Origin: Thelephora terrestris
Taxonomy: Eukaryota > Basidiomycota > Agaricomycetes > Thelephorales > Thelephoraceae
Length of the DNA: 64,000 nucleotides
Assembly: GCA_015956445.1 (NCBI GenBank)
Contig: WIUZ02000023.1
Coordinates: 248,001 to 312,000, forward strand
Direction of reading: 5' to 3'
Shown one piece after another: positions 900 through 59,276 of the stretch. The notes below the pieces were generated by a model. The model was not told where the DNA came from. It saw nothing but the letters and a program-made list of their open reading frames with translations, and made no database searches. Position 1 is the stretch's first letter; each line of letters begins with the position of its first letter. The translations under genes were made by a program, and so were the position numbers.

Positions 900-984
900 A
901 TGGGGTTAGGATAGCACTTGTATAGCTCGTTGTGGCTTCGCGGGGAATAGTACGCGCGTGTGTGTGTTTCGAATGATCAGCTGT

Positions 985-3113
985 GGTGGTCCATATCGTT
1001 AATTTCAACCTGATAAGTGGGTGATACAGTTGTTTCATACAGCCTGACAGCATGCTGTGGGCATTTTTGTAACGTTCACCTCAAGCACCCAGAATCCAGG
1101 TTGAAAATTAGGTTTCCAAATTGGGCCAATCCCATGAGGCCATATTTGGGTTGTTCCCTATGGCTGCCAGCGGCGCTCCGCAGCCTTTCCCTCTGTAAAT
1201 AATGATTATTTTACCAAATATATCGATTTTTTCCGCCAATACTGGGCCCTGCGTTGCCATTCCCAACGTGAGCGACGGTAGCAACCGTGCGAAACGAGAG
1301 CTTCGACCGTGATGGCGCGCGGGCATCCCGCGATCAGCAAAGAACCTGGCGTCCCGGGTTCTGAGCTCGCGATGGGGCCCTCCCGCAAATTCCTGCGTAG
1401 GGAATGGCCCTCCCTCCCCCCTCCCTCCCCCCTAGGCCAGCTTCTCGCGTTCGAGGATGCGTCGCGACTGTGGGAACTTTATCCCGCATTGCGATTGGTC
1501 CGCATCCACCCGATTACTCTGATCCTCATCCTACACGCTGCAGCCACATTGCCTAATCCCACCTCTCTCTCTTCCCCTCCCCTCGCAACGTACGCAGCTA
1601 CTCTTTTCGGTCTGTCCGTCCCGCCGCTCTGCTTTGCGATGACGTGGCACCCGTACCGCTCGTTTCTCAGCCGAGCGGATGATCCGGCCTCCAGATTAGG
1701 TGGGTAATCTGTCTTCCCTCCTGGATATTTTTCACTTATCGGGTTCCCCTTGGGTAGACGCCCCTCACTCGACGACAGCGGGTGTTTCTTGTGCAGTGCT
1801 TCTGATTGGCCAATGTCTGTTGCTCCGATCCCATCCTTCGCGCCGTTGTGAAGTTGGCAATCCCTTTTCCCTCTCACTCAGCATATTCCCAGCATGTTAT
1901 GCGATGGGCAACGGTCCTCCCCCTATCCTCGCGCGTGCCTCATGGATCCCCTCCGCCTATTGGTCGACGAAACTTGGTTCATCGTCCCGGCCCGCTTCTC
2001 CCATGCCCTGCTTGGCGATCCTCTTCCTCTTCCCGCCCGTTTCTTCTGTTGTCGCATTTCTCCGGGAGCAACAACCTCTCCCCATGCTCTCGCGTCCTTC
2101 GTGGATGCTCCTTTTGATTGGCCGACGCTGGTCTGCCCTCCCGATCCGCGCATCCCACTTTCCGAGCGCTTTTTGCCCCTCTTGGAAATCATCTATACCT
2201 TTCGGTCGATCCTGCTCTATCGCATTTCATCGGGAGCAGCCGCTCTGCCGCATTCCCCCACGTGCTCTAAGGACGTTGCGTTACGATTGGTCGACGCCAG
2301 TCCCGCCCCGCCGATTCCGTCTGCTCCATTTGGCAAGTCCCTTCCCTTTTCCCTCGTTCCGTGTCTTATCGCGCTTTGTGGCGAGCACCTCCTGCCCCTC
2401 CTGGAAATCATCTTCCCTTTTCGGTCGATTCTGCTCCATCGCATTCCATCGGGAGCAGCCGCTCTTCCCCATTCCCCCACGTGCTCTGTGGACGTTGTCT
2501 TACGATTGGTCGACGCCAGTCCCGTCCCGCCAATTCCGTCTGCTCCACTTGGCAAGTCCCTTCCCTTTTCCCTCCTTCCGTGTCTCATCGTGCTTTGTGG
2601 CGAGCACTTTCTGCCCCTCCTGGAAATCATCTTCCCTTTTCGGTCGATTCTGCTCCATCGCATTCCATCGGGAGCAGCCGCACTTCCCCATTCCCCACGT
2701 GCTCTGCGGACGTTGTCGTACGATTGGTCGATGCCAGTCCCGCCCCACCGATTTCGTCTGCTCCACTTGGCAAGTCCCTTCTCTTTTCCCTCGTTCCGTG
2801 TCTTATCGCGCTTCATGGCGTGCGCTGGTCCTTTCCCAACCCCCCAGGCCTCAGGTGCTTTGTTGGCGTTGAAACATCACTGGTCGACATCACTTCCCCA
2901 TCCCGCGCCTTCTTTCTGCCCCCGCATGGCAACCCTCTTCCCCTTTCGATCTCTTCTTCTCCGGTCGCGCTCTATTGGGAGAAACGACCTCCCTCTTGCA
3001 TCCTTCCTGATTCCTGCATCGTGATTGGTCAACGCCGTTCGCTCTGCTCCGTAAGTTTCTACCCTTCTCATTCAATCCATCTCCCTCATCCCGTTTGCTC
3101 TGCCATGTAAATC
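985..3113 (+). repeat. left long inverted repeat
   Basis: This matches the reverse complement of 18997-20690. The outer 60 bp (from GGTGGTCC to about 1044) aligns only loosely. From about 1045 to 2375 the two copies are almost identical: a 399-bp open frame here (1479-1877, minus) is translated without a single change in the other copy, and a second (1309-1707) shows one Gly/Arg change. Beyond about 2820 the match falls to roughly 85% by eye and fades near 3113. This copy has about 436 bp more than the right copy, equal to two 218-bp tandem units. Long Pro/Ser-rich open frames in it exist in several frames at once and are not credible proteins. Confidence 0.85.
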
Positions 3114-3660
3114 CCCTCCCATTTCGCTCTTTCGTGTCTTATTCTACTCCGTGGTGAGCAGCAATCCCCCCTCAGGTGCTCCGTCAATGCCGCAATTTCA
3201 TCCATCGACACTTCCCTATCCCGCAACTCTGACTGGAAATCCTCTTCCCTCTGTAATCACGTTCCGAGCAAGCGACGACCTCTCCACATCCCCTCCCATG
3301 TTCTGCGGACGCTGCTTTACGATTGGATGATACCGGTCCCTCTCCTGATGCCATCTCCTCTCGCTCTCTTCGGGAAATTGCTTCCCTTCTCGCTCCCCCG
3401 TGTCTCGCTCTCCCTCACGGCGAGCGGCAGTCCTCCCGCCCTCGGGTGCTTCATCAACACCGTGATGTCAATGGTCGATAGTTTTGCCTATCCACACTTC
3501 CTTTCTGCTCTGTTTAGCAATCCCCTCACTTCTTTACCTGCCCTTTCCCTTGTCTCGTTCTAGCACGTTCTCGATCTTGAGTATTGCCAGCCAATCCCTA
3601 TCCTCTCACATGTTCTGTACGCGCCGCATTCTTATTGGTTAATTCCATCTCTTTCGCCAT
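1490..3660 (+). repeat. degenerate tandem array, core ATTGGTCGACGC
   Basis: A recurring word of the form (A/G)TTGGTCGACGCC occurs at about 1493, 1805, 1957, 2117, 2284, 2503, 2721, 2879, 3020, 3319 and 3634, with weaker matches near 3196 and 3470. Spacings are mostly 140-220 bp. The three units starting near 2284, 2503 and 2721 are 218 bp apart and nearly identical, including the words GGGAGCAGCCGC and CACGTGCTCT. ATTGG is the complement of a CCAAT box and CACGTG is an E-box core, so regulatory activity is possible but not shown. The array begins inside the left inverted repeat and runs past its inner end. Confidence 0.75.
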
Positions 3661-5283
3661 GCCCTGCCGCCCCCCCCCCCTCGTTGGTTTAGTCGCTCGC
3701 TGCACGCCGTGGTAAGCGGTGGCCTTTCCCTATTTCCATCAGGTGCTTTCTCGTCGCAACGGGCTCCCCGTTCCCGCGTGTGTTTTAGTACAATTTGTCG
3801 ACGCTCATTAATTGTTCCCGATACCACCCGCCGACCACCCGCCTCCTCCAACCTTGTCCGCTCATTTGCTCGCTTCGTACCGACCGCGTCGAATGTTTGT
3901 TTCGTAACACATTGTTGAAACAGACGCACCACATACCCTACAATTAAATTAGTTCACAGTTTGTCGACAGTAACATACATCCCATGCCGCGCAACTTAGT
4001 GTTCCCCACCAGCAAAAGTTACGAGAACACGCGCCTTCGAAACGCTCTACATTATCGAGACATCTGCTGACGCCACCGCTATCTACAACCTCAGTTCCCT
4101 TCGCCTTTGTTCCCCTTGCGGATGATCAAAATCGCAGGCCGTCCCCTCATTTCAACCGCTCTCTTTACCTCCTCTTTTCGAGCATCAGCGTACACCCACT
4201 CCCCACCAACATATGCCACGCACTTCACCAACCCACAAGGCGCTCCAGAAACCCTCCGCTGTAAATCACGATGTGTATCGAACACCCCTTCCTCACCATC
4301 GCATCCTCTTACCTTACGAGTTCTCTGCAGCCCTCACAATCAACACCCCTTTGCATCCCACGTGTCCGTCCTTTCTTTACAACTTTGCTCACTACCTTTC
4401 TGGTTTGAACACCGGCCAAAATCCCTCCCTAATATCTCACACCGCACTGGCTCCCTGCCCCTCGTCGCAATGGACTCAAACCTCCGTCGGAAGCCCTACC
4501 CACTACACCTTGGAACCCTCTGCACGTCACATAGTGCTTCATTCAATTCTCGTCCCACAGGGTGAGTGGAGAATTTCGTTCTTATGCTACCCTCTGCTGA
4601 CCAACAGCTTGAAACGTGACAAACGTCAATTGTACTCTGACAGTCGTCCACAACCACAGCTCCTCGTTCAAAATGGCATGGTTGCAACAGCGCACTATCA
4701 AATATCTGGCCGCGCACTTTCTATTAGATTTCGCCACAGGCCCCATTTCGCAGCGAGACGATACCCCACGACCACCACCCTCCATGTGTAGGCCCACCCC
4801 CGATGCCGCGCACTCATCCGTAGACCATAGATCCCTCCTTACTTCCCCTCCGCTCATGGGTATCGTCTTTCTCTCGTGCAAGGCGACTCAGACTTGGGGT
4901 CCCCTTCTCCTGCCCATCCATATGGTTTGTCGTAGCTTACCTACAACCCGCGTGCTCCAGCAAATTCTCGTTAGATAACTTCCTGTATATTTACCTTCTG
5001 TGTACACCGCTTCAGACGTGCCCTCGAAATCATATAGGTTGGAATCCAGCCTCAAATACAGAGGCGGAGGAGGAACGGTTTCCGAGGGGACAGTACCTAG
5101 GGGGGCGACGCCTCTGAATAGCAATCATACCAGTTAGCTTTAACACATATCTCGTTAGCCCACGACCCTTCCTGTTCGCACGTTGTAGAAAGATATGCAT
5201 TGCCAGGCACACGGATGTGCTCACTGGTCCAAAAAACTTCGGACAAAAACCTCGGACTAGAAAAAACATTGGACTAGAAATAT
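3661..5283. other. no gene seen; C/T-rich, gene-free stretch
   Basis: The plus strand is strongly pyrimidine-rich to about 4500, as in the array to its left. A run of ten or more C lies near 3670. Several open frames exist but none has splice structure or family resemblance. I looked for a terminal inverted repeat of the KDZ element on the left of its 3' end and did not find one. Confidence 0.5.
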
Positions 5284-8200
5284 CTACCTGCTGGCATAAT
5301 CATCGTCATACTCAAACCCGACACCAAGACCATCACTATTCTCTCCCTCATCGTGGTTACCAACTTCCTGAATTCCGTCATCGCTCTCATTCCCGCTACT
5401 GCCGTCAAGGCCTGCAAACTTGAGGATGTCATCTTGTTGATTGCTGAGAGGCGTGGTTTTCGATGTGGACGGGTTACCCGACAAGAGGTTCTCGTGCGAG
5501 TTTGACGGGCCGGGAGGTTGTTTTGACGCTGGAGAGGTGACCTCGGCGGCCCAGGTGTATCCCTTCGTCCATGAGACATCGAGGTTCAATGCGAGAAGGT
5601 GAGGTATCCACTGGTTGGCGAAGGAAACTGCAAGTTGGTGATATGTGTTCGCCTGTTTGTGAGCATAACCGTCAATTCCATGCTGAATGTCAGCCGCGAT
5701 AGAGCCCAGGCGAGATCCGACTTTCTCTCTCCACCACGTGGACTTCCACTCAAGAAACGCGATAACCCGGCGCATCTCTTCTTGCAATAAGTCCGACTCC
5801 TCCTTCCAACGGTCAGCTCTTGCCCTGCAGGTCATCCACTCGTGACGGACGGTCTCGTTGACCTCCTGCTCGGGAGAATTAGTTCCCTGCTGAAGTACCG
5901 CCGCAGAACCTCTCCAGATCCAGGACATAGTGTAACGGCCATCCCCGACGCCTTGTTCCTCCACCTCCTTCCCCGGTCCGCGATTATCCTTGTCGGACAA
6001 TTCAAGGTACTCCAAGCGCCAGTCGCCTGTGGGATCCAAAGAAAGGAGAGCAGAGTAGGCTAAACGATAACGAAGCACTGTTCGGCCTATTCGAACAACG
6101 ATCCCGGACTCAGCGGTCCTCGACTTCGTTTGTGTTTTCTGGCCCTCACCAACTACGTTGGACCTGAAGTAGGTCCTCAGGCTTCGGAGGGTCCGCCTGA
6201 GACGCCGCAGGTCTACCAAGTTGTCTTGGACTTGGGCCAGGCGGAGGGTGCGTTCGGTCTCCGTGATACCCTGGTGGCATGATGACCGGTCGTCCTGGGA
6301 GACCTGAGAGGGGAGGAAGAGCGGCCACAGTTCAGGTTTCGACTCGTCAAATTCATAATCGTCTGAAGTAGGGAGGTCCTGTTCGCCAGAAAGATAGCCA
6401 GATACCCGTGGCATGTATATAGACTGAGCCGTCCTCCACAAGTTGATGCGTCGCGCAAGAACATTCCGTCGCTCTTGAATTTCCAGTTTCTGTGGGTCTG
6501 TTCGTTGTTCCTTGGATCCTTGATGCATGATAACTTGCTGTCTGTAAGGATGAGGCAGAATTAATATCCGTTGGCCCCAGAGGAGGCCACACGACACTTA
6601 CTGTTGGTTCTCAAGCTCGAGACCCATGCGGACAAAGGCGAACGGAGATAGTGTGTGCGGGGCGGTACTTCTAGACTTAGGATCAAGCGCTTCAACCTCC
6701 GAGAGTTTCCATTTTGCAGAATTGAAGTTCGAGCCTAGAATGACACAGAGTCAGAAATAATCAAGCATAAGGATGGGTCGAATGATTGGCTTACCCCTCT
6801 CGACCACTTGATATGGGTCTGGCTGCGAAAAGTCCTTATCCCACCTAAGCTTCATCATCTTCCATTCGTGGATCACACTAGATGGCCTGTGCTTCTCGAA
6901 ATCTTGACAAGCCTCCTCACACTTCCTTGCCATGACAACGGCCTCGCGTAAGTTTTTCAACAACAGGGGTCCTACCGTGAGCACGTTCGTGGTTAGTGAT
7001 TGTGCGGGTAAACTCAAATAACATGGAACATCATACCAAACCCAATAATCTTCCGCCAATTCCAGCCGCCCAATGCCCATCTAGTGCCGAATGTCGCGCG
7101 CCAGCACCCATCTCTCGCGTCGAAATGGCTGCTGGGTTAGTGTGAGCCCACCCAGACTCAATGTTTTCTCCATGAGTGCGGCCAACGCCCGGCCGGTAGT
7201 TGAACGAGTATTTTGTGTGACAACTGGAGCCGTGGGCGGGGAGGTGGAATTTCGGAATGAAAAATTCCAGCGTAAACTTGTCTTCGGGAAACTGGAGATC
7301 TTCAGAATAACTTTCTATCCTCTGACGCAACTTGATGGACCAACGGCATGCGATATCGTAAGAAACTTTGATGGTCTTGATGCCCTCGTCTTTGAGAGTG
7401 GACAGGAAAATGTAGTCCATGTTTACAACCTGATTATAAGTCGTTGAGATGCAAGGGAATACAACAGTAACACGATAGCCCACCTCTCTCCTTTTTGCAA
7501 ATCGACGACACCATTCTTGCGGACAAAACCATGGCGACAAACCACGGCACCCACACCAGACACGGTAAAGTCCCTTGAACGTTTTGAGTTCGCCTGGTTT
7601 ACGGCATGGAATTCCGTGCCACAAGTCTCGATCTGTTGGCGCGTGAACTTGCGTACAGCTTGGCAGCAAAACTGAAGAGAACACTCACGTTATCCTCGAC
7701 GCCATGATTCCCGAGGTGCGCTTCGAACTTCGCAGCATTCACGAAGTAGGCCAGTCCGGACCCAAGCTCAGGGTCTTGTATACCGCGAGACTTTAGTTTG
7801 AGCCTGAAGTTTGCATCGATTGCAATGAAAAGACTGTACAACCACCTAAAATAAATTGCCATTGAGGAAGGAAGTATGGTAGAAAACTAGGAGACAAACG
7901 CTTTATCTCCTGGCACATTTTCCCAGCCTGGAGGCAAATTCTGTCCCGGGTGGGGGCATGCTGGACACTCAATTGCGAGTGATCCATCACCGAGGTCGTC
8001 GACCGCCACAGAGGTATGACCGGCGGCACCGCGTTTTATGTCCTTGAGGTGACGCCATTGCCGGGCGCACCTTGAGATCTCGTGGTATCGGTACTGCCAA
8101 CAAATATAAGCGGGGTGGTGGAATTCTCAACAGGAAAACACACCTTCGTATCCAAACGTCCACAATTATCAGTCTTTTGCATGATTGTGGTATAGAAGTC

Positions 8201-9181
8201 GTAGAGATTCAACTTTCCCTGGAGGGATATCTTGTGGTATGTGTCCAAAAGATCGAACGTGAAAACAGTCTTGGGGCGAAGCACTGACGCCGGGTACCAA
8301 CGAACCCTCAGCAACTGTCGAAAAGGCTCCAGGAATGAAGTTTCGAGCAGTGGCAAAAACGGACGCGAACGAAATGATAACCGGAGAGGTCGATCACAGT
8401 GATCAGCTGTGTTTCCGTGTTGATGGGACAGATGTCAGTGTTGTGGTGGCCGAGATTGACGATAAGCCCAAGATTTTCAAGGGTTGCGCTCTCGAAGAAA
8501 CCGCCGTTCCACCGCTAGGGTTTGTTTAGCATTGATAGAGGTACATAACATTCAACTCACCTGAAGCCTGTGGAGCGGGAGGTCCCGGTGGGACAAAAGG
8601 ATACATCCAGCGCAATGCATAAGTTCTTCAACACAGTCCCCGCATCTGAACTCCCCCTGGCTGTTTGAGCAATCCACGCAAAGCGTATGGTCATTCAGCG
8701 CGTCACCTAGACCATCGAGGCGGAGCAATTCGTCCAGAACGACCGGGCGGTACTGAAGCCATTGTTCCATCCTGGTCTAGAAACGCGCGTGAGCAGATGG
8801 TACACACAGGTGTGAGAGATTCACCATGCTTACGCTGTCATTCTCCTTGGAAGGCTTTACGCGCTTCCGCTTCGGACGTAGTTTCGTCACCTCGGGGAGG
8901 CATTCAGAGTCGGCAAGGGTACCAGCGTCTTCAGCATCTTCGTTCCCCTTGTTCGTCGACGACTCTCCGGGTTGGTCTAAAGACTTGTGGTAATGCTTGA
9001 CCGTTCGCCTGCTCGCTGAGACGCGTCCAGTTCGTTCAGATGTAGACACGTCCCAAACGCGAATATCCTCCGCAGCATTGTCGGCATGTTTGGGGAATTC
9101 AAGATCGACAAACGTGTACGGCGCGTCGCCTCTCCTTCTTTTACGAGCCGTCTTGGGAGCTGCCCCCTGACGTTTGAGCAT
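5284..9181 (-). CDS. KDZ-type transposase with N-terminal CxC2 cysteine cluster
   Basis: This is the catalytic protein of a Kyakuja-Dileera-Zisupton DNA transposon. Translating the minus strand gives a basic N-terminus (ATG at 9181, MLKRQGAAPK, KRRRG), then the CxC2 cluster (CVDC, FRCGDC, HCAGC, HRDLPLHRLQ, WNGGFFE), LLRVRWYP, LQGKLNLYDFY, IECPACPHPGQN and WLYSLFIAIDANFRLK. Next come a SYDIACRW acidic motif and IPKFHLPAH, then the signature GVGRTHGENIESGWA with STREMG. The C-terminal part contains MGLELENQQ, RRNVLARRI and an acidic tail ending DDDYASR. At least six short introns are needed, for example the phase-0 intron after ENDS and one ending in TTTTAG before WLYSL. Near 8345-8310 the frame shifts by one base between FCHCS and PFRQLLR. 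A 38-nt GT..AG intron could absorb this, but it would delete the conserved C-x-C. The copy is therefore either inactive or unusually spliced. Confidence 0.85.
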
Positions 9182-11718
9182 AATGAGAAGAAAGGAAAGT
9201 TGCCGGGAGTGCCCGGTGCCCTGTTCGGAAGGTGAGTACAGAGGAAGCAGTTGCCCAATTATGAATGCACCTCCCGACTGCCGCGGCCCTGCCGGAGTGC
9301 CGGAAACTCCACCCACCGGGGAAAATTCCCTGAATAATGATTATAATTAGCGATCCTTCACCAGCTCCCCTCCAGGTTTGGGCCTCGGCGAGTGAAGAGC
9401 GGCATGGGTATTGTGCCTGACTGAAAACTTACCTCGGTATAGACAAACGTACTCTGGAGGTAAACAGTCCATTCTTGGGCTTGAGTACCTGAGATCTTAA
9501 ACACGTTGGATGCTCTCGAAATCGGTCGACCCGCTGATATCGCTGGCAGGAACGATTCTGAAACGTGGTCAGCCGACGGGTGCTGGTCATGTGCAGGCGC
9601 TTCTTTATCTGTTATCGCCAAAGTGCTTCTGGCGCTAGCTTCGCTCACGCATCCCCTCCAACTATTGGCTCCTGCTTAATATCGCTGAGAGCTCGTTGTA
9701 ATGAGGGCATGATTCTCGCGTGGTTTTGGACGGTACAGCCACCTGGATCGCTTGCGATGGTGCAGATGCTTCACCGCGCCCTTACAATCAGTGGAGGTAT
9801 GTTCAGCCCTATCTCTGACCTCTAACCATAACCTGAAATGGTGTCGACAGGTACGGAATCAATCTCTTGTTGACGCGTCCAAATATCGTATATTAACGGT
9901 TTTGTATGTCAAGGCCTTCGTGCATCGAGGTTTTCGTATCAATCCCCTTCGCAGTCTCCTTCACGTTCCACTGTCCATGGGACTCGCTTCTCCTGTGGTC
10001 CCTATGTTTCTTCTCGCCGAGGTTACTAGAGTCTGACCATACTTGGCATGACTCAAGGCATCCATTATTTCGTAATAGTTAGGGTCCGAGTAGATTAGCG
10101 GGACGACCAGCGTTGATTCAGCGAGACACAGAGCATTATTTAACTTGAATTTACACTTTTTGGTATCGCAAACACGGCCTTCCTCAATATCTAAGTTTAA
10201 TAATTCGGTTAATCGAATAATTTGGTTAATCGCTTTTTCAAAAACATAGACCATAGAAAGGATTCTCGAAGGAATCAATCGAGGATACCGCTGTTTGGTG
10301 TTGCCTCTAGTGAAATTCGGTGGACTTAATTTTTTTTGGCTTTGGAAGAACGCACTCTGCAACTAAAAATAAGCCAGGTGAACGGATTAGTAACACGTTG
10401 AACGTTAACGTTCAAACCAAGGGGGCGAGTCCACCACTGGCGACCAGATTGAAGATTCTGTGCACTTAGTGATTTCAGGTGTGCTCAAACGTATGCGCCG
10501 GTTGATCCATGACTAACGATGCACGATGCACGATGAGCTAACAGGCATACTGGAAGCTAGGTGTTTGCTATATCCCCTCCGATTTCAAATTTTCGTACCA
10601 ACCAAGTTTTTGCTTTCTCGAGATCTTTGATCATCAATCTCACTGGACGGTCTGACCACCTGTTTCGATCGATGGTATAATCTACATATCTCACTCGAGG
10701 GTTCGATTGGTGCACAAGAATTCATACGCTCTCTTGCTCTCCTGGAGGAACCTCACTAACGCCGCCCCCACTGCAGGTAAGCTGAGTGGTTGTACTACGC
10801 GCGCACAAATTTCGAGAGATTCTAGGACTTCGTGCGTTGCACCAGTTCAGCAACACTCCAACCGGCGTGCGTTTGAAAATTCCATCTGCAATTTCTTCGC
10901 ATCAGAAAACAGCCTGGCCTCCTAGACATGGCCAGGAAGTATAACGGCCCTGCCTCCAGTCTTCCGAGTGCAGATGTGATTACTAGATCTGTTCTCAGCA
11001 GAATTCCATCGATTCATCCATTGCCTACTGACCGTACAAGGTCTCGGATCTCGGATCCCAGGTGTTGAAGAAAAACCTCTTTTGGCATATGTACACGTAG
11101 TTCCTGTGCCACGGGTACTCTCGAAGTGGTGTAAATGGTGTGCAGATGCAGCAACAATGATATTCTGCTTTTTATCACAATCATCGCCCAGTATTCATCA
11201 CAATCGCGTGTGCATGAGAAGGGAAGCGCACGGACTACGAATAATAACTACTACCCGAACGATTATCTACGTTATTGATTGTTCATAAGTCTGAAAATGT
11301 GTATATACGTATGGGCCTGGCACGCTGAGCTTCATCGAGTGAGAATTCGGTCGAGTGGGAGTGCGTATGCCAGAAATATACAGAGATATCGACTAAGCGT
11401 CAAGATAACACTTATGCCAAGCGTTCCAGCTTGCAGGGTTGCGATTCTGCACAGGAGGCAACGCCCAAGCCCTAAAGCACTGAATATTCGTATAGGTACA
11501 GCCGGTTGTTCCATACATTTAACTGCGCTCGTGTACACAAGGTATGACCTGACACCATCTGGAGCCAAGAAATGAGAAGTCTATTTTTCGGGCATCGATA
11601 TCATCGATGTACAAGAACATATGGAGATACTCTTCGGGACATTAGCAGAGGGCTACGGAACAAATCGACGACAGGTATGCGAAGGGTGCGAAGTCTCGAT
11701 AGCAAGCGCAAAATAATT
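9182..11718. other. no gene seen; AT-richer spacer with a perfect palindrome
   Basis: No open frame here resembles a protein or has plausible introns. Bases 10398-10415 form a perfect 18-bp palindrome (TTGAACGTTAACGTTCAA), next to an AT-rich stretch with GGTTAATCG-like repeats (10200-10230). The 5' flank of the KDZ gene (9260-9345) holds GGGGAAAATTCCC-like symmetry but no matching repeat on the other side. Confidence 0.4.
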
Positions 11719-12818
11719 CTAAGTCAAGATCTGAATGGAGCCGGAAGCGAGACTAGCGTTGTAGAAATCCCTGGCTTGCTCCCATGATTTTGCCGCGTAG
11801 TAGAAACTCCCAGAAATTCCAAACACCCAGGGCTCGGCCTCTTCCCTGACAATGGGTCTATGAGATGAGCGCCGGGATTGAGAACCAACTCACCAGTCGG
11901 TAAATATACCCACGTAGAGACCCTTGGTGATGACAAAATACATACAAGGAGGAGCATGTCCTGGAGCCGTAGGAGGGCTGTAATAGGTTCCTGGAGCCCC
12001 TGGCACGAAACGTAAGGCCACGCGGATCTTTTCGAGTCGGAATAAAGACACACCTGAGGGAAGGAACGGGGGGTGATAGCTATAGTCGGGGAACCTGACG
12101 TTTTCTCGAGAGGAAAGGATGAGAGGATAACGGCCATGGATCTTGAGTGAGGCTGATGATGGAATTTGCTCTGGATCTGGGATTGGAGTAGGGATACAAG
12201 TGAGAACCGGAGACGAGGTAGGAGCCGGGGGTATGGCCCTGGTAGGGGTAATAGTAACTGTGCGACGAGGTAAAGAAGTAGTGCTGGGTTGATCGGGATC
12301 TATCCCGACGTTGGGCGACCCAAAGTCCGCGCCAAAGTCTTCGGCCCCAGGGGGAGGGTAGGTGCAGGAACCTGAAAAATGTCAGACAAGATGGAAAAAA
12401 GTACTGGAGACTTACGCGGGTCCATGGCGAGGCCTTTAAAGTCCAAGGAGACCTTACGCCCCATCAAATCCAACGCCAGGTCAGCCTTCATCAAGAGGGA
12501 GTCTAGCCTGTACCGAATCTCCCTCAACTCATCCTCGGGGAGCTCGACGATTAAACAGTGAGACATCCGTATTAAGCCGTCGCACATCGCGAAAGCAGTT
12601 GAGTTGGGAAGCACTACAAAGTCAGCTCCAGCGATTTGGTGGCGCATTGTAAACAGGGGAGAGGTAAAAGATGCAGGTTGATGACGACGGCGGGGAGGGC
12701 GTGGAAAACAACCTTTCCCGTTGTTTAAATACATACTGTAGGCAGACCGCTTTGGGGACGAAGGCGGCCACATGGCCTGAGGCGTTGGCTGGCGTGGGGG
12801 GCGATGATCCCGCGGCAT
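11719..12818 (-). CDS. protein with RNase H1 N-terminal (viroplasmin-like, Cauli_VI) domain
   Basis: The N-terminal half is Pro/Arg-rich, then LIVELPEDELREIRYRLDSL (possible helix), then a Pro/Thr-rich linker (PPAPTSSPVLTCIPTPIPDP). The C-terminus reads YYSPPTAPG, MYFVITKGLYVGIFTDW, then PWVFGISGSFYYAAKSW and EQARDFYNASL. This is the pattern of the small RNA/DNA-hybrid-binding domain found at the N-terminus of eukaryotic RNase H1, with the Tyr-Val-Val-x-x-Gly-x-x-x-Gly-Ile-Phe core. Introns are good: one after AMDP (GTAAGT..TTTTTCAG), one near 12058-12003, and one splitting FTDW (GTGAGT..GTCAG) that joins to EEAEPWVFG. The stop is at 11719-11721. No RNase H catalytic domain follows, so cleavage is not expected. 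The start is uncertain: ATG at 12818 or a more internal one. It lies in the inverted-repeat unit, 2.5 kb upstream of the transposase. Confidence 0.6.
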
Positions 12819-13720
12819 CTGAATATCATATATGAAAATTTTGCAAAACTGATCGAGCAACCAACCTCCCCGCTACTTCCAAGTCCTCCAGGTTTCGAGC
12901 TATCCCCTACCTTTCACCAGCCACCCACCACCTCTTGGTGGGGCTCACATGGGAGTGGTTCGGGAGATGGATGGTCGGGTTGTTGGTTATATGGGTGATG
13001 TGCGTAGCTAAGCATTCCCTCTCTCGTTGATATGTATTGATGATCATTTTCGAAAGGCAAGATTCGGTGGAGCGGAACGTGGCGTCTCCTCCTGAATGAT
13101 TCACACGCCTTACGTCCCTCAGCTTGATGGATTAAAGGTTGAAGGAGGTGATTATGGCCCAGTTGGACTTCGACTTGCTCAATGGATTAAAGTTTGATAG
13201 GATGATTCTTGCTCAGGTCATCGACTTGCTCGATGGCTATTTCATACCAACTCTGGAAGGCGTAACTCACTCTGTGTATAGATATCTCCGTGTTTCACTT
13301 GGGCGCATGCCAAAGATGGTGTCGGCTGACCCGATGGTCACTCGCCGGTGCACATGTTCCTTCCACTCATTCTCTCGGCCCCACTGCCAGGTGCGTCAAC
13401 TGGCAGACTTACACGAGACCAGAATTTTTACAAGAGAAGTAATTTACCTAGCCGCCAGGATGGTGCACTAAGACTGAATGTGACGCCGAAATGGTACCAT
13501 CGCGACAAGCGATTGTCGGCCTACTGGGATCCTCAAACAGGCTCACAAATACCATGCGCAACACCGGCAGAGAACACGCAGTACGGGTTGCCAGAACGCC
13601 TTGACATCCATAGCAACTTGCTGTCGATTCTCCGTATGGAAGGGCACTGGTCGCACTTCAGGTGGATATAAAATCCAAGTTATCAGGTCAAGTGTGAATC
13701 CCATCATACCCTCTGACCTC
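12819..13720. other. no gene seen
   Basis: Short open frames only. A near-duplicate of about 20 bp (CGACTTGCTC(A/G)ATGG) occurs at about 13168 and 13220. I could not build a spliced gene. Confidence 0.4.
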
Positions 13721-13857
13721 GTTATTACTCCTCCACTAGTCTTACCTTGTTATCGCTCCCTCGCCAGTCTCACCTCGATACCGCTCCTTCGCCAGTCTCA
13801 CTTCGTTATCACTCCTTCGCTAGTCTCACCTCACTCCTTCGCTAGTCTCACCTCACT
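13721..13857 (+). repeat. 28-bp minisatellite abutting a start codon
   Basis: About four and a half copies of a unit containing ACTCCTTCGC(C/T)AGTCTCACCT are arranged head to tail, with internal variation (TATTACTCCTCCACTAG first, CACTCCTTCGCTAG last). The final partial copy runs straight into the ATG at 13858, so the array forms the 5' leader or core promoter of the next gene. It is a C/T-rich tract of the kind common at fungal transcription starts. Confidence 0.8.
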
Positions 13858-16714
13858 ATGCCGCCAAGACGCTCGGACGGGAAGTCTAAGGAACAGGTCG
13901 AATTTCTGACGTCCCATTTGGCAAACTTTTTTATCCATCAGACCGCTGGATCGTTGGATCGTTTCTGGCCACGTGTATACGAGGGCTGGCAGAAGCAGTG
14001 GCCTATCGTCCCTCCTGCTGAGGACATCAAGGTACACGGCTCGCGTGAGAAAGCATTATCGAAACTCCGTGCGGCTAATAACAAAGTGCGTATTATAAGA
14101 TGCCTCTACCTTTTATTCTAATCATTCATTTCATCGATAGAATCTACGCACGTGGTTCCACAACAAGGGTCGTCCGACCTCCAAGTCGTCAAAATCCGAT
14201 CTGCGATTGGGCCAAACTGAAAAGCGAAAACTCGCCCCTGCACAAGCCTACTGCAATTACAACTGGGAATCCGGCCTCAAAGACGTCGTTGAGGCCCGCT
14301 GGGACCAACATCTGAAGTCCCAACCGACCCCAACCTCTGCCGCTCAGATCCCGATCGACTTCAAACTCAAAATTTCAAAAGAGCTCTACGACGCGCTTCC
14401 TCCTGACGAGAGGAAACAGGTTGAAGAGCGTCGTGATGCGGAATGGGCGAAACTGTACCGGCCGGTACGGGACATCGTGGATCCTCAGGAACGAGATGAG
14501 AAACTCACCTGGCACGAACAGTAAGATATTCCTACATCATTATCTGCAACGTCTTCTTATATGGTCGTTGCACCACTCTAGTAACCAGCCCACGGTGGCA
14601 AAAACCTTGTCCCGTGCGCTCAAGAACCTCGAAGATCAGGCAGGGTGTATTGCCCATCTGCTTGTTGGGTATGTAAATCCTCGAGATGGAACCGCGACCT
14701 TTCAGAAGTGAGTTTTCGATGCATTTCCCAGATCGCCTCAATCTAACGCCCTTGAAATGAAGTTATTCTCAGGGGGAAGGTGAGTTTTTGGACTTTCGCC
14801 ACTTCTGCGGGGATGATTGGAACGATGTCATCGAGAAGAGGTTCACAGAGTGGGGTATGGAGATCTTCGGTAGTACGTGCCCCTGAGACATAGTCGAGGA
14901 AAAAACATTAACCGCCTTGCTTCAGAACCAAATACTAGTGGACGATCGCAATTCATGTTCACCAACGCACCTCCTGTCCCTCAACCCACTGCGTCCTCGT
15001 CCACCACGCGGGATTCTGCAACTCCGATGGAGGAATACAGCGAAGCCTCGCCTAGTCCCAGTATCAACGCAGTCGACGATGTTGAAGGTGTCGGGATTGC
15101 CGACGTCATTGCTCTTGACGAGCACGCTGAAGACGCGAGGGCCGTTCCTCAGGAAATCTCTGCAACTCAACAGACGCCCGGGCCCATCGAGTTCATCTCC
15201 CCCCAGGAAATCTTCGGGATTCCTATGTCCATTGAGTTCACTGCGGACAACATTTCCACCACTTCACCCGTTGCTGTCCAGCTGCCTTCCATTGCTCCTT
15301 CGCCTCTTGATTTTCCCCGGGTGACCACACCCCACCAAACCACCATTGCTCCTGTGGTCTCCGGACCCCTTCTTGTCACTCCTCTTGAGCCATCCCAAGC
15401 CGTTGTTTCCCCTCTTGCTTCTGAAATCACAGATCTTGTCTCTTCCTCTGATGCTCTTGGTTCGCCTCATCAAGCAAAAAATCACTCCGTCGTTGATAAG
15501 CTCTCCGGTACACACGACCTCCCTCAAGCCCCTCAAGTTGTCGGCCCGCATCCTGCAGAAGGGGCCACCAATGGCATGTCTGGAACGACCAGAAGCACCT
15601 ACAAAACTCGGGTATGGACCGAGGGAGCACTCGCCATTCAATCACGACGTGATTCTGTGGAAGGAGCCCCTGACGTCATTTTGACACTCGGCGGGTCCGG
15701 GTATGAACTTCCAGGGCGCCCATATGACTCACCCCTTTCCACCGCGTCATCTGCCACGTCTCATCACTTAAAACAGACCACGACCCCATTTGACAACCTC
15801 ATTGTACCCTCGTCGCAACAGTCGCTCGAGGGGGTCTTGACGATACCTGTGGAGATCAATACGACCCTCTCTTCCATCTCCGGTGAACCTGCTATCCCAC
15901 CACAGGAAGAGCATCTCGAGGCATCTTCCCCCGTCGTCAGAAAACTATCCCTCTTTACTCCCCGGATCATCCCCACCTACCATATCGACCGATCGGACAT
16001 CCCGTCCTGGCTCATCGACCGTGGGAGACTCGACTTCATTCTATCCGTGGAGGCGGGAGGTCTCTGGGAAAAACTCATTATGACCTGGCTCCGTCAGGAG
16101 AGAAGGCTCGGTTTTGGCCTCGACGAAAAGATTGTGAGTAGGAGTCTATGTCGTCCCCCATTGCATTTCTAATCACTTTCCCACAGGGAGTAAACCTGAA
16201 CTCGACACAGAAGCCCAAAATCCTTGGCGAATACTTCAAATGGCATCACAACCCCTCCAAAGGGGATTCCGTCGTATTGCCGGAGTTCGGCGAGGAGGTC
16301 GCGCTTTGGTGGTACAGTATTCAACCCCAATGGCGTCCCAAGTCCAAGACCCACGACAGTGACTACTCTTATATACTCGCCGGTGGGAAGAAGGGCGTGT
16401 TCCTCCTCATCTTGTGCTTGGCTTGGTGGGACCGCGCGTGGGCCCAGAAGTTGGAGGGAGAGAAGCCTGAACGCCATGTAGCTGCACGAGCTGCCACAAA
16501 GGACGACGCCAACTTGGATCCCCGCAGTCTACCTGCTCACGATTGCGCCTGGTTCAATATCCTCTGCGACCTGATATACGTCCTGGAGCGTGCACAGGGC
16601 TGGCCGGTTCCCGCCAAGGGTGGTCCCGCGACCACGGGAGCACGCTCCGGACGAACGAAGCGAGCAGCTGAGCCAGCAAACGCTTCGCCGCGAAAGAAGA
16701 AGAGGTCGTCTTGA
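13858..16714 (+). CDS. Trp-rich multi-exon hypothetical protein
   Basis: A well-formed gene of unknown function. Exon 1 (MPPRRSDGKSK, LDRFWPRVYEGWQKQWP) joins through an intron at about 14083-14140 to NLRTWFHNKGR. This continues through CNYNWESGLKDVVEARWDQH and VEERRDAEWAKLY. Later exons give TVAKTLSRALKNLEDQAG and HLLVGYVNPRDG, then DFRHFCGDDWND and KRFTEWGMEIFG. A long Pro/Ser/Thr-rich disordered stretch follows (about 14930-15940). The C-terminal part reads IPSWLIDRGRLDFIL, then after an intron at about 16134-16186 GEYFKWHHNP, VALWWYSIQPQWRP and GVFLLILCLAWWDRAW. It ends with a basic, nuclear-signal-like KRAAEPANASPRKKKRSS. From memory, similar proteins with this Trp spacing are numerous in agaricomycetes, but I cannot name a function. 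The start is fixed by the minisatellite junction. Confidence 0.7.
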
Positions 16715-17233
16715 TTGTTCCTCTATAGCTGCTTTTGTCTTCACCCCCATTGCCCGCTGATCACCTTCCTGCCCGTTTTCTTTTTTGTTGACGCTCTCTC
16801 ACAATCCACCCGCCTGTCTTTGCAAATATCTACGAGTGCTGATGTATACCGCTTTCCCGACTACCGTTGACTTTGCCTCTCGCCCTTGTTTTTACACCAC
16901 CTTAACCACCTGTCTTTACAAGTTACCGATCAATATCGTTGTCATCGTGTTTGACATATCGTTCGACACATGAAAATTGATCACGCTGGATATATCGATC
17001 ACTTTTGTCTTCAGTCGGGCACCGGAAATGCCAATAATGAATGAATGAGGTAACCGCCTCGGAGTACTTCTCGAGTAGTGGTCATCCTTTCGCGCGAGCA
17101 CTATCTATTCAGGATGGGCAACTTCCCAAGTGGTCCGTTGCTGGCTTCTTATCTCGCCACATCCCCATATTTGGTCGTGATAAAAGGATGCTCGTGCGGG
17201 CAGATGACACAGTTTTCCCCCTCCTAGCCCCCC

Positions 17234-18278
17234 ATGCAGAACAGCAGAACGACTGGGTCCCCTGCCCTGTTCGAGGCCCGTATCGCGCTCTCTAGTCGTG
17301 CCACTCCTGTTACTCCCACTCCAAGACGTGTCCGTGGTGGTGACGACCTTTTGCGAAGCCCCATTTCCGCACGCGAATTTTCCTCCAAGAAGTCTCGCCG
17401 AGACGACAGCATTTTTAGTGAATATAAGGCAATTTTGAGGCGTGCGACAACCCTCGTCACTTTCGAGTGGGATGCTCAAACTTCAAAGGGCGCTCTCGTT
17501 CCCATTCCTTAGTGAGTCGTTTTGATTTCCTGTTTTAGCTCCGCTCACATTGCCGTGGGTCAGCCCTCTGGATGAGAACGGATCACCAGTCGAGCCGTCA
17601 CATTTGCCGCAGTTCCTTCAGACACATGACTGGGATCGTCCGTCATGTTTCTGTGTGATGCGTGGATCCCCTCGCAAGGCACAGTTCCTCGTCCCAACCT
17701 GGCGGGAGTCCGCATCGTTTGATATGATGTGTCTCGTCTGTCCCGAGTCCGACTGTTCCTACTTCGGTGAGTTTGCACGTCACGTCTACACTCACAGATT
17801 GTTGACACTTCGGCATTTAGTGAACGTTGTCGAACTTATGAGTAATTACAGGGACCAAGTCCTGTCCGTTAGAGACGCAGGTGCGAGCGAAAGCGACTCG
17901 GCGACATCGAGCAGTGGTCAGTATATTTGAACCACCTCAGTGCGTACTGTGGCTTACTACCACGCGATTACTCTAGGTATCACCGCAGAGGCTGTCCCGA
18001 AGAAACGTAAGCGCAACCTTCGACAGAGGGCTCCCGATGTTAAGGGGAAGTCGGCCAGTCTCAACGTTGCCTCGTCGTCGAGCCGCCCCAAGTCACATCC
18101 AAACGATTGCCCATCTGCAGGGGTCGCTTCAACAGTTTCAAACCTCCTCAGCAGACACGGTGTCCTCCAGGAACAATTTTACAAGGCATTCCGTGTTTGT
18201 GACTATTGTCGTAGGATCGTCTGCAATGAGACCTCCCAGATTGACGGCCACGTTTGTGTAATTGAAGTCGAAGACTAG
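17234..18278 (+). CDS. hypothetical protein with C-terminal Cys/His pairs
   Basis: Four exons fit cleanly. Exon 1 (MQNSRTTGSPALFEARIALS) ends VPIPY. A 52-nt intron at 17512-17563 joins to PLDENGSPVEPSHLPQFL and continues through WDRPSCFCVMRGSPRK and MCLVCPESDCSYF. A second intron is likely at 17767-17820, although the frame stays open through it. A third joins SSSG to ITAEAVPKKRKRNLRQR, a strong basic nuclear-type signal. The C-terminus holds CDYCRRIVC, ten residues, then GHVC, a plausible zinc-binding cluster, with another CLVC..C group upstream. Function unknown. It is co-oriented with the preceding Trp-rich gene, 520 bp away, and lies inside the inverted-repeat unit, so it may be element cargo. 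Confidence 0.55.
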
Positions 18279-18996
18279 CTAGTGCCCGGTTGTACCTATT
18301 TTGATCTCATCATCCACAATATATTTCTTGTTGTTTCATGAGTGCAGAGGTGTCTATCCTAAAATTTATTGTATGGAAGGACTTATGTTAGTCTCCAGCC
18401 TAGACGAACAAAGCTACGTGCGGAAGGAAGACAACGCCGCGGAATCTGCCGGACGAGAGGCGGATTCGTGAGGAGCGAGACTCGACCAAAATTAACGGCA
18501 ACGTTGGAGAGGCGTTGTCGAAGCCAAAGGGGTCACCGGCACAGGTTTCCCGACTGCACAGGTCCTCGTTGCCATTGCGATGGGAAAGGGAGGCAGTTGA
18601 GATCACGCGGACAGTCGACTGAATGTCGCCCAATATGTACATATATGATGTGACTCGACTCGGACAAATAAGTCAAGCTTGTTTTGGAATGAGGAAGGGA
18701 GAGCAGGGTCACGACGCGATGCAAAGACATATGGGAACGACAAAAAAGGGAACGTTGTACTGTCAGGGAAGCCTACGAAATGAATAGGGACATAAAGCGG
18801 AAGGAAGCGGCTGCAATGTGATGGAAGGGGAAGGTGATCTACTAATGGAGGGCAAACAACGTGTCGGATAGAAGTAGGCAGACGCGAGCTGTGCAAAGTT
18901 CCTTCCGTCGTCTTAGTCGCAGCTGTGTTGCTTCAAGCCATGATCAGTAATTGGATGGACAAGGTGGAAATCAGATAACACGCAGTCGGCTGGAAG
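18279..18996. other. no gene seen
   Basis: Purine-rich plus strand with no convincing coding frame. It lies between the Cys-pair gene and the inner end of the right inverted repeat. Confidence 0.4.
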
Positions 18997-20690
18997 CGGA
19001 TTTGCGAGCAAAGGGGAAGGGGCGAGATGATTCGAAAGGCAAAGGGAAAGAAACTTACCAAGCAGAGTGAACGGCGTCGGCCAATCACGATGCAGGATCG
19101 GGAAGGATGCGAGAGGGAGGTCGTTTCACCCAACAGAGCGCGATAAGATAAGAAGAGATCGAAAGGGGAAGAGGGTTGCCATGCGGGGCGGAAAGAAGGC
19201 ACGGGATGGGGAAGTGGCATCGACCAGTGATATTTTGACGTCATCAAAGCACCTGAGGGGTTGGGGAAGGACTGCTGTTCGCCACAAAGCGCGATAAGAC
19301 ACGGAACGAGGGAAAAGGGAAGGGACTTGCCAAATGGAGCAGACGGAATCGGCGGGGCGGGACTGGCGTCGACCAATCGTAACGCAACGTCCTTAGAGCA
19401 CGTGGGGGAATGCGGCAGAGCGGCTGCTCCCGATGAAATGCAATAGAGCAGGATCGACCGAAAGGTATAGATGATTTCCAAGAGGGGCAAAAAGCGCTCG
19501 GAAAGTGGGATGCGCGGATCGGGGGGGCAGACCAGCGTCGGCCAATCAAAAAGGAGCATCCACGAAGGACGCGAGAGCATGGGGAGAGGTTGTTGCTCCC
19601 GGAGAAATGCGACAACAGAAGAAACGGGCGGGAAGAGGAAGAGGATCGCCAAGCAGGGCATGGGAGAAGCGGGCCGGGACGATGAACCAAGTTTCGTCGA
19701 CCAATAGGCGGAGGGGATCCATGAGGCACGCGCGAGGATAGGGGGAGGACCGTTGCCCATCGCATAACATGCTGGGAATATGCTGAGTGAGAGGGAAAAG
19801 GGATTGCCAACTTCACAACGGCGCGAAGGATGGGATCGGAGCAACAGACATTGGCCAATCAGAAGCACTGCACAAGAAACACCCGCTGTCGTCGAGTGAG
19901 GGGCGTCTACCCAAGGGGAACCCGATAAGTGAAAAATATCCAGGAGGGAAGACAGATTACCCACCTAATCTGGAGGCCGGATCATCCGCTCGGCTGAGAA
20001 ACGAGCGGTACGGGTGCCACGTCATCGCAAAGCAGAGCGGCGGGACGGACAGACCGAAAAGAGTAGCTGCGTACGTTGCGAGGGGAGGGGAAGAGAGAGA
20101 GGTGGGATTAGGCAATGTGGCTGCAGCGTGTAGGATGAGGATCAGAGTAATCGGGTGGATGCGGACCAATCGCAATGCGGGATAAAGTTCCCACAGTCGC
20201 GACGCATCCTCGAACGCGAGAAGCTGGCCTAGGGGGGAGGGAGGGGGGAGGGAGGGCCATTCCCTACGCAGGAATTTGCGGGAGGGCCTCATCGCGAGCT
20301 CAGAACCCGGGACGCCAGGTTCTTTGCTGATCGCGGGATGCCCGCGCGCCATCACGGTCGAAGCTCTCGTTTCGCACGGTTGCTATTGTCGCTCACGTTG
20401 GGAATGGCAACGCAGGGCCCAGTATTGGCGGAAAAAATCGATATATTTGGTAAAATAATCATTATTTACAGAGGGAAAGGCTGCGGAGCGCCGCTGGCAG
20501 CCATAGGGAACAACCCAAATATGGCCTCATGGGATTGGCCCAATTTGGAAACCTAATTTTCAACCTGGATTCTGGGTGCTTGAGGTGAACGTTACAAAAA
20601 TGCCCACAACATGCTTGTCAGCCTGGATAACACAACATGGTGACACAGTTATCACCAATTTTACATACGATGGGGACCACCATTAGTGCC
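18997..20690 (-). repeat. right long inverted repeat
   Basis: This is the reverse complement of the left repeat. It has only one unit of the 218-bp type where the left copy has three, so it is about 436 bp shorter. Its outer end (20610-20690) aligns loosely to 985-1045, its middle is almost identical to the left copy, and its inner 280 bp is more diverged. On its outer side it abuts the copia gag fragment at about 20640-20690. Confidence 0.85.
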
Positions 20691-20923
20691 TGCTGAATTG
20701 GAGTGATGACGGTGGATCCAATGAGTCCTTTGGCCTTGTTGTAGCGACTGCGAAACTTGGCCTTCTCAGCGACGGAATCGTCGTAAGGTACGTCCTCTCC
20801 AGTGATCTGGTCCCAGCAGTCACCTAACAACGCTAGGTTCTCTACTGCAGTGGACCACTCGGCGTAATTTGCCTGGCCGGCGAGGACAGGGACGCTTGAA
20901 ATTTGCTTAGCGAGATCGGACAT
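20690..20923 (-). pseudogene. Ty1/copia gag N-terminal fragment
   Basis: ATG at 20923 opens a frame reading LAKQISSVPVLAGQANYAEW, STAVENLALLGDCWDQITG, then AKFRSRYNKAKGLIGST. The order 'L.G.NY..W....' followed by a short helix and an 'A...I' helix is that of the copia-type gag N-terminus (UBN2 / DUF4219 style). Likeness to gag stops near 20690, where the inverted repeat takes over, so more than 90% of the retrotransposon (rest of gag, protease, integrase, reverse transcriptase, 3' LTR) is missing from this side. The LTR and primer-binding site lie correctly just upstream. Confidence 0.7.
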
Positions 20924-21025
20924 CGCGTAAGACTTTTTGTGATGAAGAGGGTAGGATGCAAAGGAGGTAGGAGGGGAGATGGTTCTTGATAAAACGAGGT
21001 GGGTAGCGTAGTCTGAGGTTTAGAG

Positions 21026-21047
21026 CGTTCGAGCCGGGCTCATAACC
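21026..21047 (-). promoter_or_regulatory. copia-type primer-binding site (half initiator tRNA-Met)
   Basis: Reading on the minus strand, the LTR ends CCAACA and is followed directly by GGTTATGAGCCCGGC. This is complementary to the anticodon arm of an initiator tRNA-Met (..GGGCUCAUAACC..), the half-tRNA primer used by copia-class elements. It sits about 105 bp upstream of the gag ATG. Confidence 0.65.
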
Positions 21048-21347
21048 TGTTGGACGACGGCGAAACCTAGACGTATCGCTGTAAGCGAAAAGTCCTCAAT
21101 CAAGAGTAAAGACGATTTATTGTACCTAGACGTATCGCTGTAAGCGAAAAGCTATCGACTGGGTAAGCGAGGGTTCTAGAAAGAGAGAATAAAATATACG
21201 CACTCCTCAATCAAGAGTAAAGACGATTGAGGAGTCGAAACGAAAATTGACTGATCCTGTACGCGGTAGCGGTCGTGGGAAGTAACTACTAAAAGCGTAA
21301 CGAGATAAGGAAAGGTTCGGAAACACGGAAAGTCTAATATTTCAACA
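21048..21347 (-). repeat. copia LTR (300 bp)
   Basis: The block begins TGTTG and ends CAACA on the plus strand, which is the expected TG..CA inverted terminus. It holds two internal direct repeats: CCTAGACGTATCGCTGTAAG at about 21066 and 21125, and TCAATCAAGAGTAAAGACG at about 21095 and 21208. The primer-binding site and gag start lie on its lower-coordinate side, so it is the 5' LTR of a minus-strand element. No second LTR is in the window. Confidence 0.75.
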
Positions 21348-58943: not shown

Positions 58944-59276
58944 ATGAGCAGCCTTCTCAACGACAGCATTTGCTATGCTCTCAACTTTGGAGCATCACCA
59001 ATGATACCGTTGAGAATCGTTGAACGCTACCTCTACACTATCAATCCACCAGTTCATGCGAGCTCAGAACTCACCACCAATGGGGAAAATTACCTCGGTG
59101 AGTTTAGTCGGCCACTTTCTATCCCTCAATACGCAACGTTAACACAACGTTGTCGTGTTTCTCCTGGATTGTCCTCAATATTGAGCCTTGCGATGTTTGG
59201 CAGCCGGACAACCAGTCGTTCAACACGATTGATGTCACACCCCACGTCGGATTATATTCGGCCGCGTATATCATAA
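58944..59276 (+). CDS. doubtful small hypothetical gene
   Basis: ATG at 58944 opens MSSLLNDSICYALNFGASP, MIPLRIVERYLYTINPP, SSELTTNGENYLG, followed by a perfect GTGAGT donor. A second protein-like stretch in another frame just downstream (FSWIVLNIEPCDVWQPDNQS, FNTIDVTPHVGLYSA, IHERTPNHGTRKEKK) looks like its continuation, but I found no acceptor that joins them. The first half is absent from unit 2 while the second survives there (DTIDVTPDVGFYSALYTKIH), which suggests a real gene whose second copy lost its 5' end. No domain recognised. Confidence 0.35.
   Translation: MSSLLNDSICYALNFGASPMIPLRIVERYLYTINPPVHASSELTTNGENYLGEFSRPLSIPQYATLTQRCRVSPGLSSILSLAMFGSRTTSRSTRLMSHPTSDYIRPRIS

What the first reader, a model, noticed from the sequence alone, without database searches (positions are those of the whole stretch)
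985..20690. Possible 19.7 kb transposon with 2 kb terminal inverted repeats, a KDZ transposase and cargo genes
Two inward-facing repeats of about 2 kb with an almost identical 1.3 kb core flank a KDZ transposase, an RNase H1 N-terminal-domain gene, and two hypothetical genes with nuclear-type signals. Single-copy housekeeping genes are absent inside. Near-identity of the repeats alongside a diverged interior suggests recent duplication or gene conversion of the ends. If real, this would be a large cargo-carrying KDZ element, comparable in idea to giant cargo elements of ascomycetes.
Basis: partly seen in the sequence, partly recalled or inferred. Interest (0 to 1): 0.8.

Follow-up and report, generated by a model that had tools for sequence, protein, structure and literature searches.

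The report
Large mushroom transposon with mirrored arms
A mycorrhizal mushroom carries a young 20-kilobase jumping element whose transposase travels with three companion genes between two near-identical inverted arms; it looks like a large, unusual variant of a known transposon type rather than a carrier of random cargo.

Summary
Window 978-20688 is a complete mobile element: a second copy, 99.7% identical over 19.7 kb, sits at an unrelated site (contig C58) of the same genome, very probably Thelephora terrestris. Termini are CA..TG and target duplications 7 bp, as published for Kyakuja (KDZ) transposons of mushrooms. Uninterrupted versions of three insertion sites were obtained: two as paralogous sequences, one as a Copia element joined from flanks. 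The 'cargo' is not random: the transposase gene, an RNase H1-N gene and two orphan genes (B, C) recur in the same order and orientation at seven loci, and rough dN/dS values are below 0.4 for all four. The arms evolve in concert: 97-100% identical within a copy near the ends, 58-68% between lineages, while the outermost ~50 bp stay end-specific. Copies diverge almost only by CpG transitions, a sign of methylation. The window and C58 copies have swapped flanks: the parts of one Copia retrotransposon and the 7-bp duplications lie crosswise. This means a crossover between copies or an assembly switch; it cannot be decided here. No sign of a Starship. New variant of a known kind.

The parts
978..20688 (.). 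whole element, 19,711 bp, CA..TG termini
   Evidence: 99.69% match to G000:C58:1382535-1402230 ends exactly here, flanks unrelated
971..977 (+). 7-bp target duplication at the left side (GAATGAT); its partner lies right of the C58 copy
   Evidence: single uninterrupted copy in a paralogous site at C60:1529838-1529844
20689..20695 (+). 7-bp target duplication at the right side (CCTGCTG); its partner lies left of the C58 copy
978..1027 (+). left terminal sequence, end-specific
   Evidence: 73.5% to the C7 left end, 58% to the right end of the same copy
20639..20688 (-). right terminal sequence, end-specific
   Evidence: 74.5% and 82.4% to right ends of C7 and C60, 58% to the left end of the same copy
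1029..3100 (+). left inverted arm (core 1029-2398)
19006..20636 (-). right inverted arm (core 19263-20636)
2163..2818 (+). three ~219-bp tandem units inside the left arm
5284..9184 (-). KDZ transposase gene (ab initio model about 1035 aa, PF18758 + CxC2 PF18803; start inferred); this copy shows three single-base length differences against the C58 copy inside the gene
   Evidence: dN/dS 0.17 against C60
9344..11563 (.). 2.2-kb segment matched only in the window and C58 copies
   Evidence: no Pfam match above a cut-off in the ORFs scanned here
11719..12785 (-). RNase H1 N-domain gene (model 11719-12566; conserved to 12785)
   Evidence: PF01693, conserved in C60
13858..16714 (+). gene B, 846-aa model, orphan family (public model BJ322DRAFT_1025103)
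   Evidence: dN/dS 0.30
17234..18278 (+). gene C, about 280-292 aa, Cys-containing orphan family (start mapped over from the C58 model)
   Evidence: dN/dS 0.22
20689..21347 (-). LTR (21048-21347) and gag start of a Copia retrotransposon that the element interrupts; the rest lies left of the C58 copy
   Evidence: LTRs 100% identical over 301 bp, 5-bp duplication CATGG, gag frame continuous across the joined flanks

Best explanation
A young, probably autonomous cut-and-paste DNA transposon of the Kyakuja (KDZ) type, 19.7 kb long. Inferred: the KDZ transposase recognises end-specific terminal sequences of about 50 bp. Shown: insertion makes a 7-bp duplication. Inferred: the three conserved companion genes serve the element's own life cycle, for example as transposition cofactors or counter-silencing factors. 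Shown: the long inverted arms are near-identical within a copy and diverged between lineages, while the termini stay distinct. Inferred: this comes from gene conversion or repair between the two arms, kept out of the last ~50 bp by selection for distinct ends. Inferred from the mutation spectrum: copies are silenced by CpG methylation.
For: Second copy at an unrelated site, 99.69% over 19,718 aligned columns. TSDs: GAATGAT and CCTGCTG crosswise on the window and C58 copies, TCCAGAC on both sides of C1:30-18841. Uninterrupted sites: paralogue at C60:1527664-1529951, paralogue at C21:133874-134722, and the Copia joined from flanks. All 11 end sequences compared start with CA (some ends were located with a pattern that begins with CA, and several belong to closely related copies, so they are not 11 independent cases). 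Published Kyakuja: 7-bp TSD, CA..TG (PMC12730594 section 3.2.1). Four-gene block in order at 7 loci. dN/dS below 0.4 for all four genes. Arms against termini. 28 of 31 transitions at CpG between the window and C58 copies, 13 of 15 between C60 and C21.
Against: The published Laccaria Kyakuja families have no TIRs, so long arms are atypical. Assignment to Kyakuja rather than Zisupton/Dileera rests on TSD length and termini, not on a transposase tree. The window's transposase gene has three single-base length differences against the C58 copy, perhaps sequencing errors, and my gene finder gave two pieces rather than one full gene on the C58 copy, so an intact full-length transposase was not shown. 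Companion functions are unknown; models of B and C are ab initio; the gene C structure was low-confidence (mean pLDDT 40). Some of the C60 pieces used for dN/dS contain stops. No transposition event was observed. The C7 copy has unmatched 7-bp flanks, explained here by a contig ending 29 bp past it with the C1 flank; TSDs of C60 and C21 cannot be tested because only one end of each is held.
Confidence: 0.86

Rival explanations
1. Starship-like carrier: a KDZ element that picks up varying host genes as cargo.
For: Size of 19.7 kb and several non-transposase genes; KDZ loci with no companion hit nearby exist in the genome; a 2.2-kb segment differs between lineages.
Against: Same four genes, same order and orientation at 7 loci, 67-77% identical between lineages; B and C found only in Thelephora and three unnamed metagenome proteins at this search depth; no captain domain in the 26 queries scanned.
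Confidence: 0.06
2. Segmental duplication or assembly duplicate rather than a transposon.
For: Some copies sit at contig ends, and the C59 end and C1 start are the same locus assembled twice.
Against: Flanks of the window and C58 copies are unrelated beyond exact borders, 7-bp TSDs, three uninterrupted sites.
Confidence: 0.03
3. Sub-question: the swapped flanks of the window and C58 copies record a real crossover between two element copies, i.e. a reciprocal translocation between chromosomes.
For: The window's left flank and the C58 right flank form one site; the window's right flank and the C58 left flank form one Copia. CpG decay is mosaic: C58-derived 9 of 10 in 978-6000, mixed in 6001-15000 (window 5, C58 4), window-derived 7 of 9 beyond 15000.
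Against: The same pattern, mosaic included, arises if an assembler switches between two 99.7% identical 19.7-kb repeats; other copies broke or confused this assembly. Fisher tests (p about 0.006) used regions chosen after seeing the data; the permutation with a free switch point gives p = 0.06.
Confidence: 0.35
4. The element is no longer autonomous and was moved by a transposase from another of the many KDZ copies.
For: Single-base differences inside the transposase gene of the window copy; no single full-length model on C58; 125 KDZ matches in the genome, exon by exon.
Against: The C58 copy has the KDZ domain (profile 38-217) in one open frame without stops; transposase dN/dS 0.17; the end-specific termini are shared by the lineages that carry this transposase.
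Confidence: 0.1

Closest known systems
Kyakuja DNA transposons of Agaricomycotina (Kojima 2025, PMC12730594; Laccaria Kyakuja-1_LB, -2_LB)
   Same: KDZ transposase, CA..TG termini, 7-bp target duplications
   Different: the two published Laccaria families are described as without TIRs and carry a TET/JBP dioxygenase gene; here ~2-kb homogenised inverted arms, no TET/JBP match in the ORFs scanned, and three other conserved genes
Cryptococcus KDZ1/KDZ2/KDZ3 (PMC12810828, passages)
   Same: KDZ transposase with a CxC cysteine domain, TIRs, multi-kb length
   Different: 9.2-11 kb, TIRs of 139-241 bp, TSDs of 8 bp (4-8 bp for KDZ2/3), CxC1 not CxC2
Zisupton and Dileera (PMC12730594)
   Same: same KDZ supergroup
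   Different: 8-bp TSDs
Starships of ascomycetes (recalled, no call)
   Same: large fungal element with several non-transposase genes
   Different: Starships use a tyrosine recombinase captain and carry variable cargo (recalled); here a KDZ transposase and a recurring gene set

Membership tests
Kyakuja (KDZ) | KDZ transposase domain | tested here: met
   PF18758 E 7e-35 and 6e-35
Kyakuja (KDZ) | 7-bp target site duplication | tested here: met
   TCCAGAC on both sides of the C1 copy; GAATGAT and CCTGCTG crosswise for the window and C58 copies. C7: flanks do not match; C60 and C21: one end only, not testable
Kyakuja (KDZ) | CA..TG termini | tested here: met
   11 of 11 end sequences compared, some located with a pattern starting with CA
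Kyakuja (KDZ) | no TIRs (as described for two Laccaria families) | tested here: not met
   arms of about 1.4-2.1 kb in the window copy, about 1.7 kb in C7; a descriptive trait of the published families, not a mechanism
Kyakuja (KDZ) | transposase falls in the Kyakuja clade of a tree | not tested
   no reference Kyakuja/Zisupton/Dileera set at hand
TET+ Kyakuja | TET/JBP dioxygenase gene | tested here: not met
   no Tet_JBP match in 26 Pfam queries (two of them repeats) from the element and its right border; not every ORF was scanned; the genome-wide search did not complete
Zisupton / Dileera | 8-bp TSD | tested here: not met
   7 bp
Starship | tyrosine-recombinase captain (DUF3435, recalled) | tested here: not met
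   no such Pfam match in the same 26 queries
Starship | variable host-derived cargo (recalled) | tested here: not met
   same four-gene block at 7 loci

The most novel reading that the evidence does not exclude
A Thelephora-specific branch of Kyakuja has turned into a four-gene, long-armed transposon whose RNase H1-N, B and C proteins are obligate parts of its transposition or anti-silencing machinery. Its arms are rewritten from each other at each transposition, and its copies act as crossover points that have exchanged chromosome arms.
Probability: 0.25. Interest if true: 0.7.

Novelty: new variant of a known kind. Interest (0 to 1): 0.52.

Why it matters
Mushroom KDZ transposons are common, but in the papers I saw few are described as whole elements. 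This one gives complete ends, target duplications, uninterrupted sites, recently duplicated copies and a conserved companion gene set, so the role of the companions can be tested. The contrast between arms that evolve together and ends that stay distinct is a natural experiment on what the transposase needs and how arms are repaired. Copies that differ almost only at CpG sites are a clean record of what looks like methylation-driven decay.

Tried and rejected
Diploid or allelic explanation: one stretch of the window (40022-42274) has a single full-length match in the genome, with only 86% partial matches elsewhere, and C58 flanks are unrelated, so the copies are not alleles.

Telomere targeting: several copies lie at contig ends (C1, C7, C59, C60, C21). 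No run of two or more TTAGGG or CCCTAA units was found in the three loci checked, the last 9.9 kb of C60, C21:160001-170000 and the last 2.6 kb of C7; the last 749 bases of C21 were not checked for this. C1/C59 prove to be one locus broken in assembly. Not supported.

Arms as genes: long open frames in the arms have no Pfam match above a cut-off and overlap each other on both strands; treated as non-coding, though my gene finder called models there.

Function of B and C: no Pfam match; the PDB sequence profile search gave no match for B and one at E 0.88 for C; the structure model of C is too poor to search; the structure job for B was not accepted.

Never answered: the genome-wide TET/JBP search, the arm-interior search (1301-3600) and the request for the full C1 copy.

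Paper searches for KDZ transposase with cargo, giant transposable elements in Basidiomycota with cargo genes, KDZ with Thelephora, and long TIRs with gene conversion gave no paper. Kyakuja/Dileera/TIR gave 10, Kyakuja 12, KDZ with TIRs and basidiomycete 4, Thelephora terrestris with transposable elements 1. Of these I read sections and passages of PMC12730594 and passages of PMC12810828, PMC9674265, PMC7473861 and PMC11844451; the rest I saw as listings only. None of what I read describes this element; only an open-licence library was searched.
Full report
What is there. The window lies in a 40.6-Mb, 60-contig assembly (C16:248001-312000). A protein of the element matches Thelephora terrestris BJ322DRAFT_1025103 at 98%, on a contig whose length, 649,275, equals that of C16, so the host is very probably this ectomycorrhizal mushroom (its lifestyle is recalled).

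A second copy sets the borders. C58:1382535-1402230 matches the window at 99.69%, and the match stops at 978 and 20688 with unrelated sequence outside. The copies differ by 32 substitutions and 8 length differences. The ends, read inward, begin CAGCTGTGGTGG on the left and CACTAATGGTGG on the right. A search with 985-1300 found 6 places: the four ends of these two copies and one end each of two ~70% relatives on C60 and C21; no isolated arm. The interior of the arms was not searched because the tool stopped answering.

Target duplications and uninterrupted sites. The C1 copy (C1:30-18841) has TCCAGAC on both sides. Its left flank, and the right flank of the same locus as assembled on C59, are contiguous in a related sequence on C21 (87% and 92% identical), overlapping by exactly seven bases. 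For the window and C58 copies the 7-mers are crosswise: window left and C58 right share GAATGAT; window right and C58 left share CCTGCTG. A related locus on C60 runs without interruption from the window's left flank (90% over 2.2 kb) into the C58 right flank (95% over 114 bp) through one GAATGAT. Window right plus C58 left give one Copia retrotransposon: 301-bp LTRs 100% identical, 5-bp duplication CATGG, gag frame continuous over the junction. So both original sites are known, and the flanks have been exchanged between the copies in the assembly as printed. A crossover between copies and an assembler switching inside a 99.7% identical 19.7-kb repeat both explain this. Contigs C60, C21 and C59 end inside other copies, and C7 ends 29 bp past one with a flank identical to that of C1, so the switch is the safer guess.

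Not random cargo. Three DNA searches of the genome with the interior gave 42, 18 and 49 match rows, lower bounds by the tool's own note. All four genes are hit in the same order and relative orientation in the window, C58, C60, C21, C1 start (the same locus as the C59 end), C7 near 1.03 Mb and C1 near 3.34-3.37 Mb (where about 16 kb separates transposase and RNase H1-N gene): seven loci. Partial sets: C17 (three genes), C7 near 0.70 Mb, C22, C12 and C45 (two genes each), C13 (96-99% fragments). KDZ hits without a companion hit nearby lie at C59:835446, C21:15240, C19:251393 and C3:267589 among others. Against C60, dN/dS is 0.17 for the transposase (941 codons), 0.38 for the RNase H1-N gene (253), 0.22 for C (308) and 0.30 for B (832; the value 0.35 included a misframed piece). 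These are Nei-Gojobori type estimates on tblastn pieces, dS 0.7-1.1, a few C60 pieces with stops, and no significance test, so they are rough. B and C have homologues only in Thelephora (T. terrestris, and T. ganbajun for B) and three unnamed metagenome proteins; only about 8,000 candidates were scored.

Arms and ends. In the outermost 50 bp, left ends of different lineages agree at 73.5% and right ends at 74-82%, but the two ends of one copy or locus only at 54-58%. From 81 to 1100 bp inward the arms of one copy or locus agree at 97-100% in aligned columns, and arms of different lineages at 58-68%. For C1/C59 the pair is taken from the two contigs of that locus. For C7 the gapped identity is lower, 95.9% over the outer 1.1 kb and 89.9% further in, and its right end may be contaminated by the C1 copy. 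The arms are therefore rewritten from each other within a lineage, up to but not into the terminal sequence. The mechanism (gap repair after excision, or ordinary gene conversion) is inferred.

Silencing and age. Of 32 substitutions between the window and C58 copies, 31 are transitions and 28 of these are at CpG, where CpG holds 2,558 of 10,334 cytosines (binomial 2e-14). C60 against C21: 15 transitions, 13 at CpG, 1 transversion. Outside CpG only four substitutions separate the window and C58 copies, so their split is very recent. Overall CpG content is not yet depleted (observed/expected 0.95). Methylation itself was not measured.

Comparison. Kojima 2025 (PMC12730594; I read the outline, introduction, sections 3.1.1 and 3.2, figure legends and passages) gives 7-bp duplications, CA..TG ends and no TIRs for Laccaria Kyakuja, and 8 bp for Zisupton and for a Dileera element. 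Cryptococcus KDZ1-3 have TIRs of 139-241 bp and lengths of 9-11 kb (PMC12810828, passages). The present element works like, and most likely is, a Kyakuja, but it has long homogenised arms and carries three other conserved genes, with no TET/JBP match in the ORFs scanned; it is about twice as long as the Cryptococcus elements (lengths of the Laccaria elements were not given in what I read). I rate it a new variant of a known kind. A transposase tree was not made.

Limits. Gene models are ab initio with simple splice rules; the window's transposase gene shows three single-base length differences against the C58 copy, which may be sequencing errors, and the finder split the C58 transposase into two models. 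The mosaic test for the exchange was framed after seeing the data; its permutation with a free switch point gives p = 0.06.

Noticed in passing
C58:1377776-1382534 and window 20689-21347: A young Copia retrotransposon with identical 301-bp LTRs, interrupted by the element, its two parts now on different contigs.
   Followed up: yes
L013-L016, L019, L020 (C60:1539137-1559942 and C21:148592-169398): A second recent pair of the same element type, 99.85% identical to each other and about 70% to the window copy; both contigs end inside them.
   Followed up: partly
C59 end and C1 start (L053-L056): The two contigs overlap in one element copy and share the right flank, so they probably belong together in the assembly.
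   Followed up: partly
C13:506244-511567: Fragments 96-99% identical to window 13225-15102, separated by about 2.9 kb and 0.5 kb of other sequence with short overlaps like target duplications.
   Followed up: no
window 59216-60814 and 62374-63968: Direct 1.6-kb duplication, 90% identical, containing similar open frames.
   Followed up: no
window 9344-11563: 2.2-kb segment matched only in the window and C58 copies; C1 and C7 have an interval of about the same length at the same position that does not match it.
   Followed up: partly
whole genome G000: 125 KDZ domain matches (exon by exon, so fewer genes; the tool calls its counts lower bounds), a large transposase family in this mushroom.
   Followed up: no
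C60:1526626-1529951 and window left flank (1-977 and upstream): A repeated sequence, 90-95% identical, that hosts one insertion; nature unknown.
   Followed up: no
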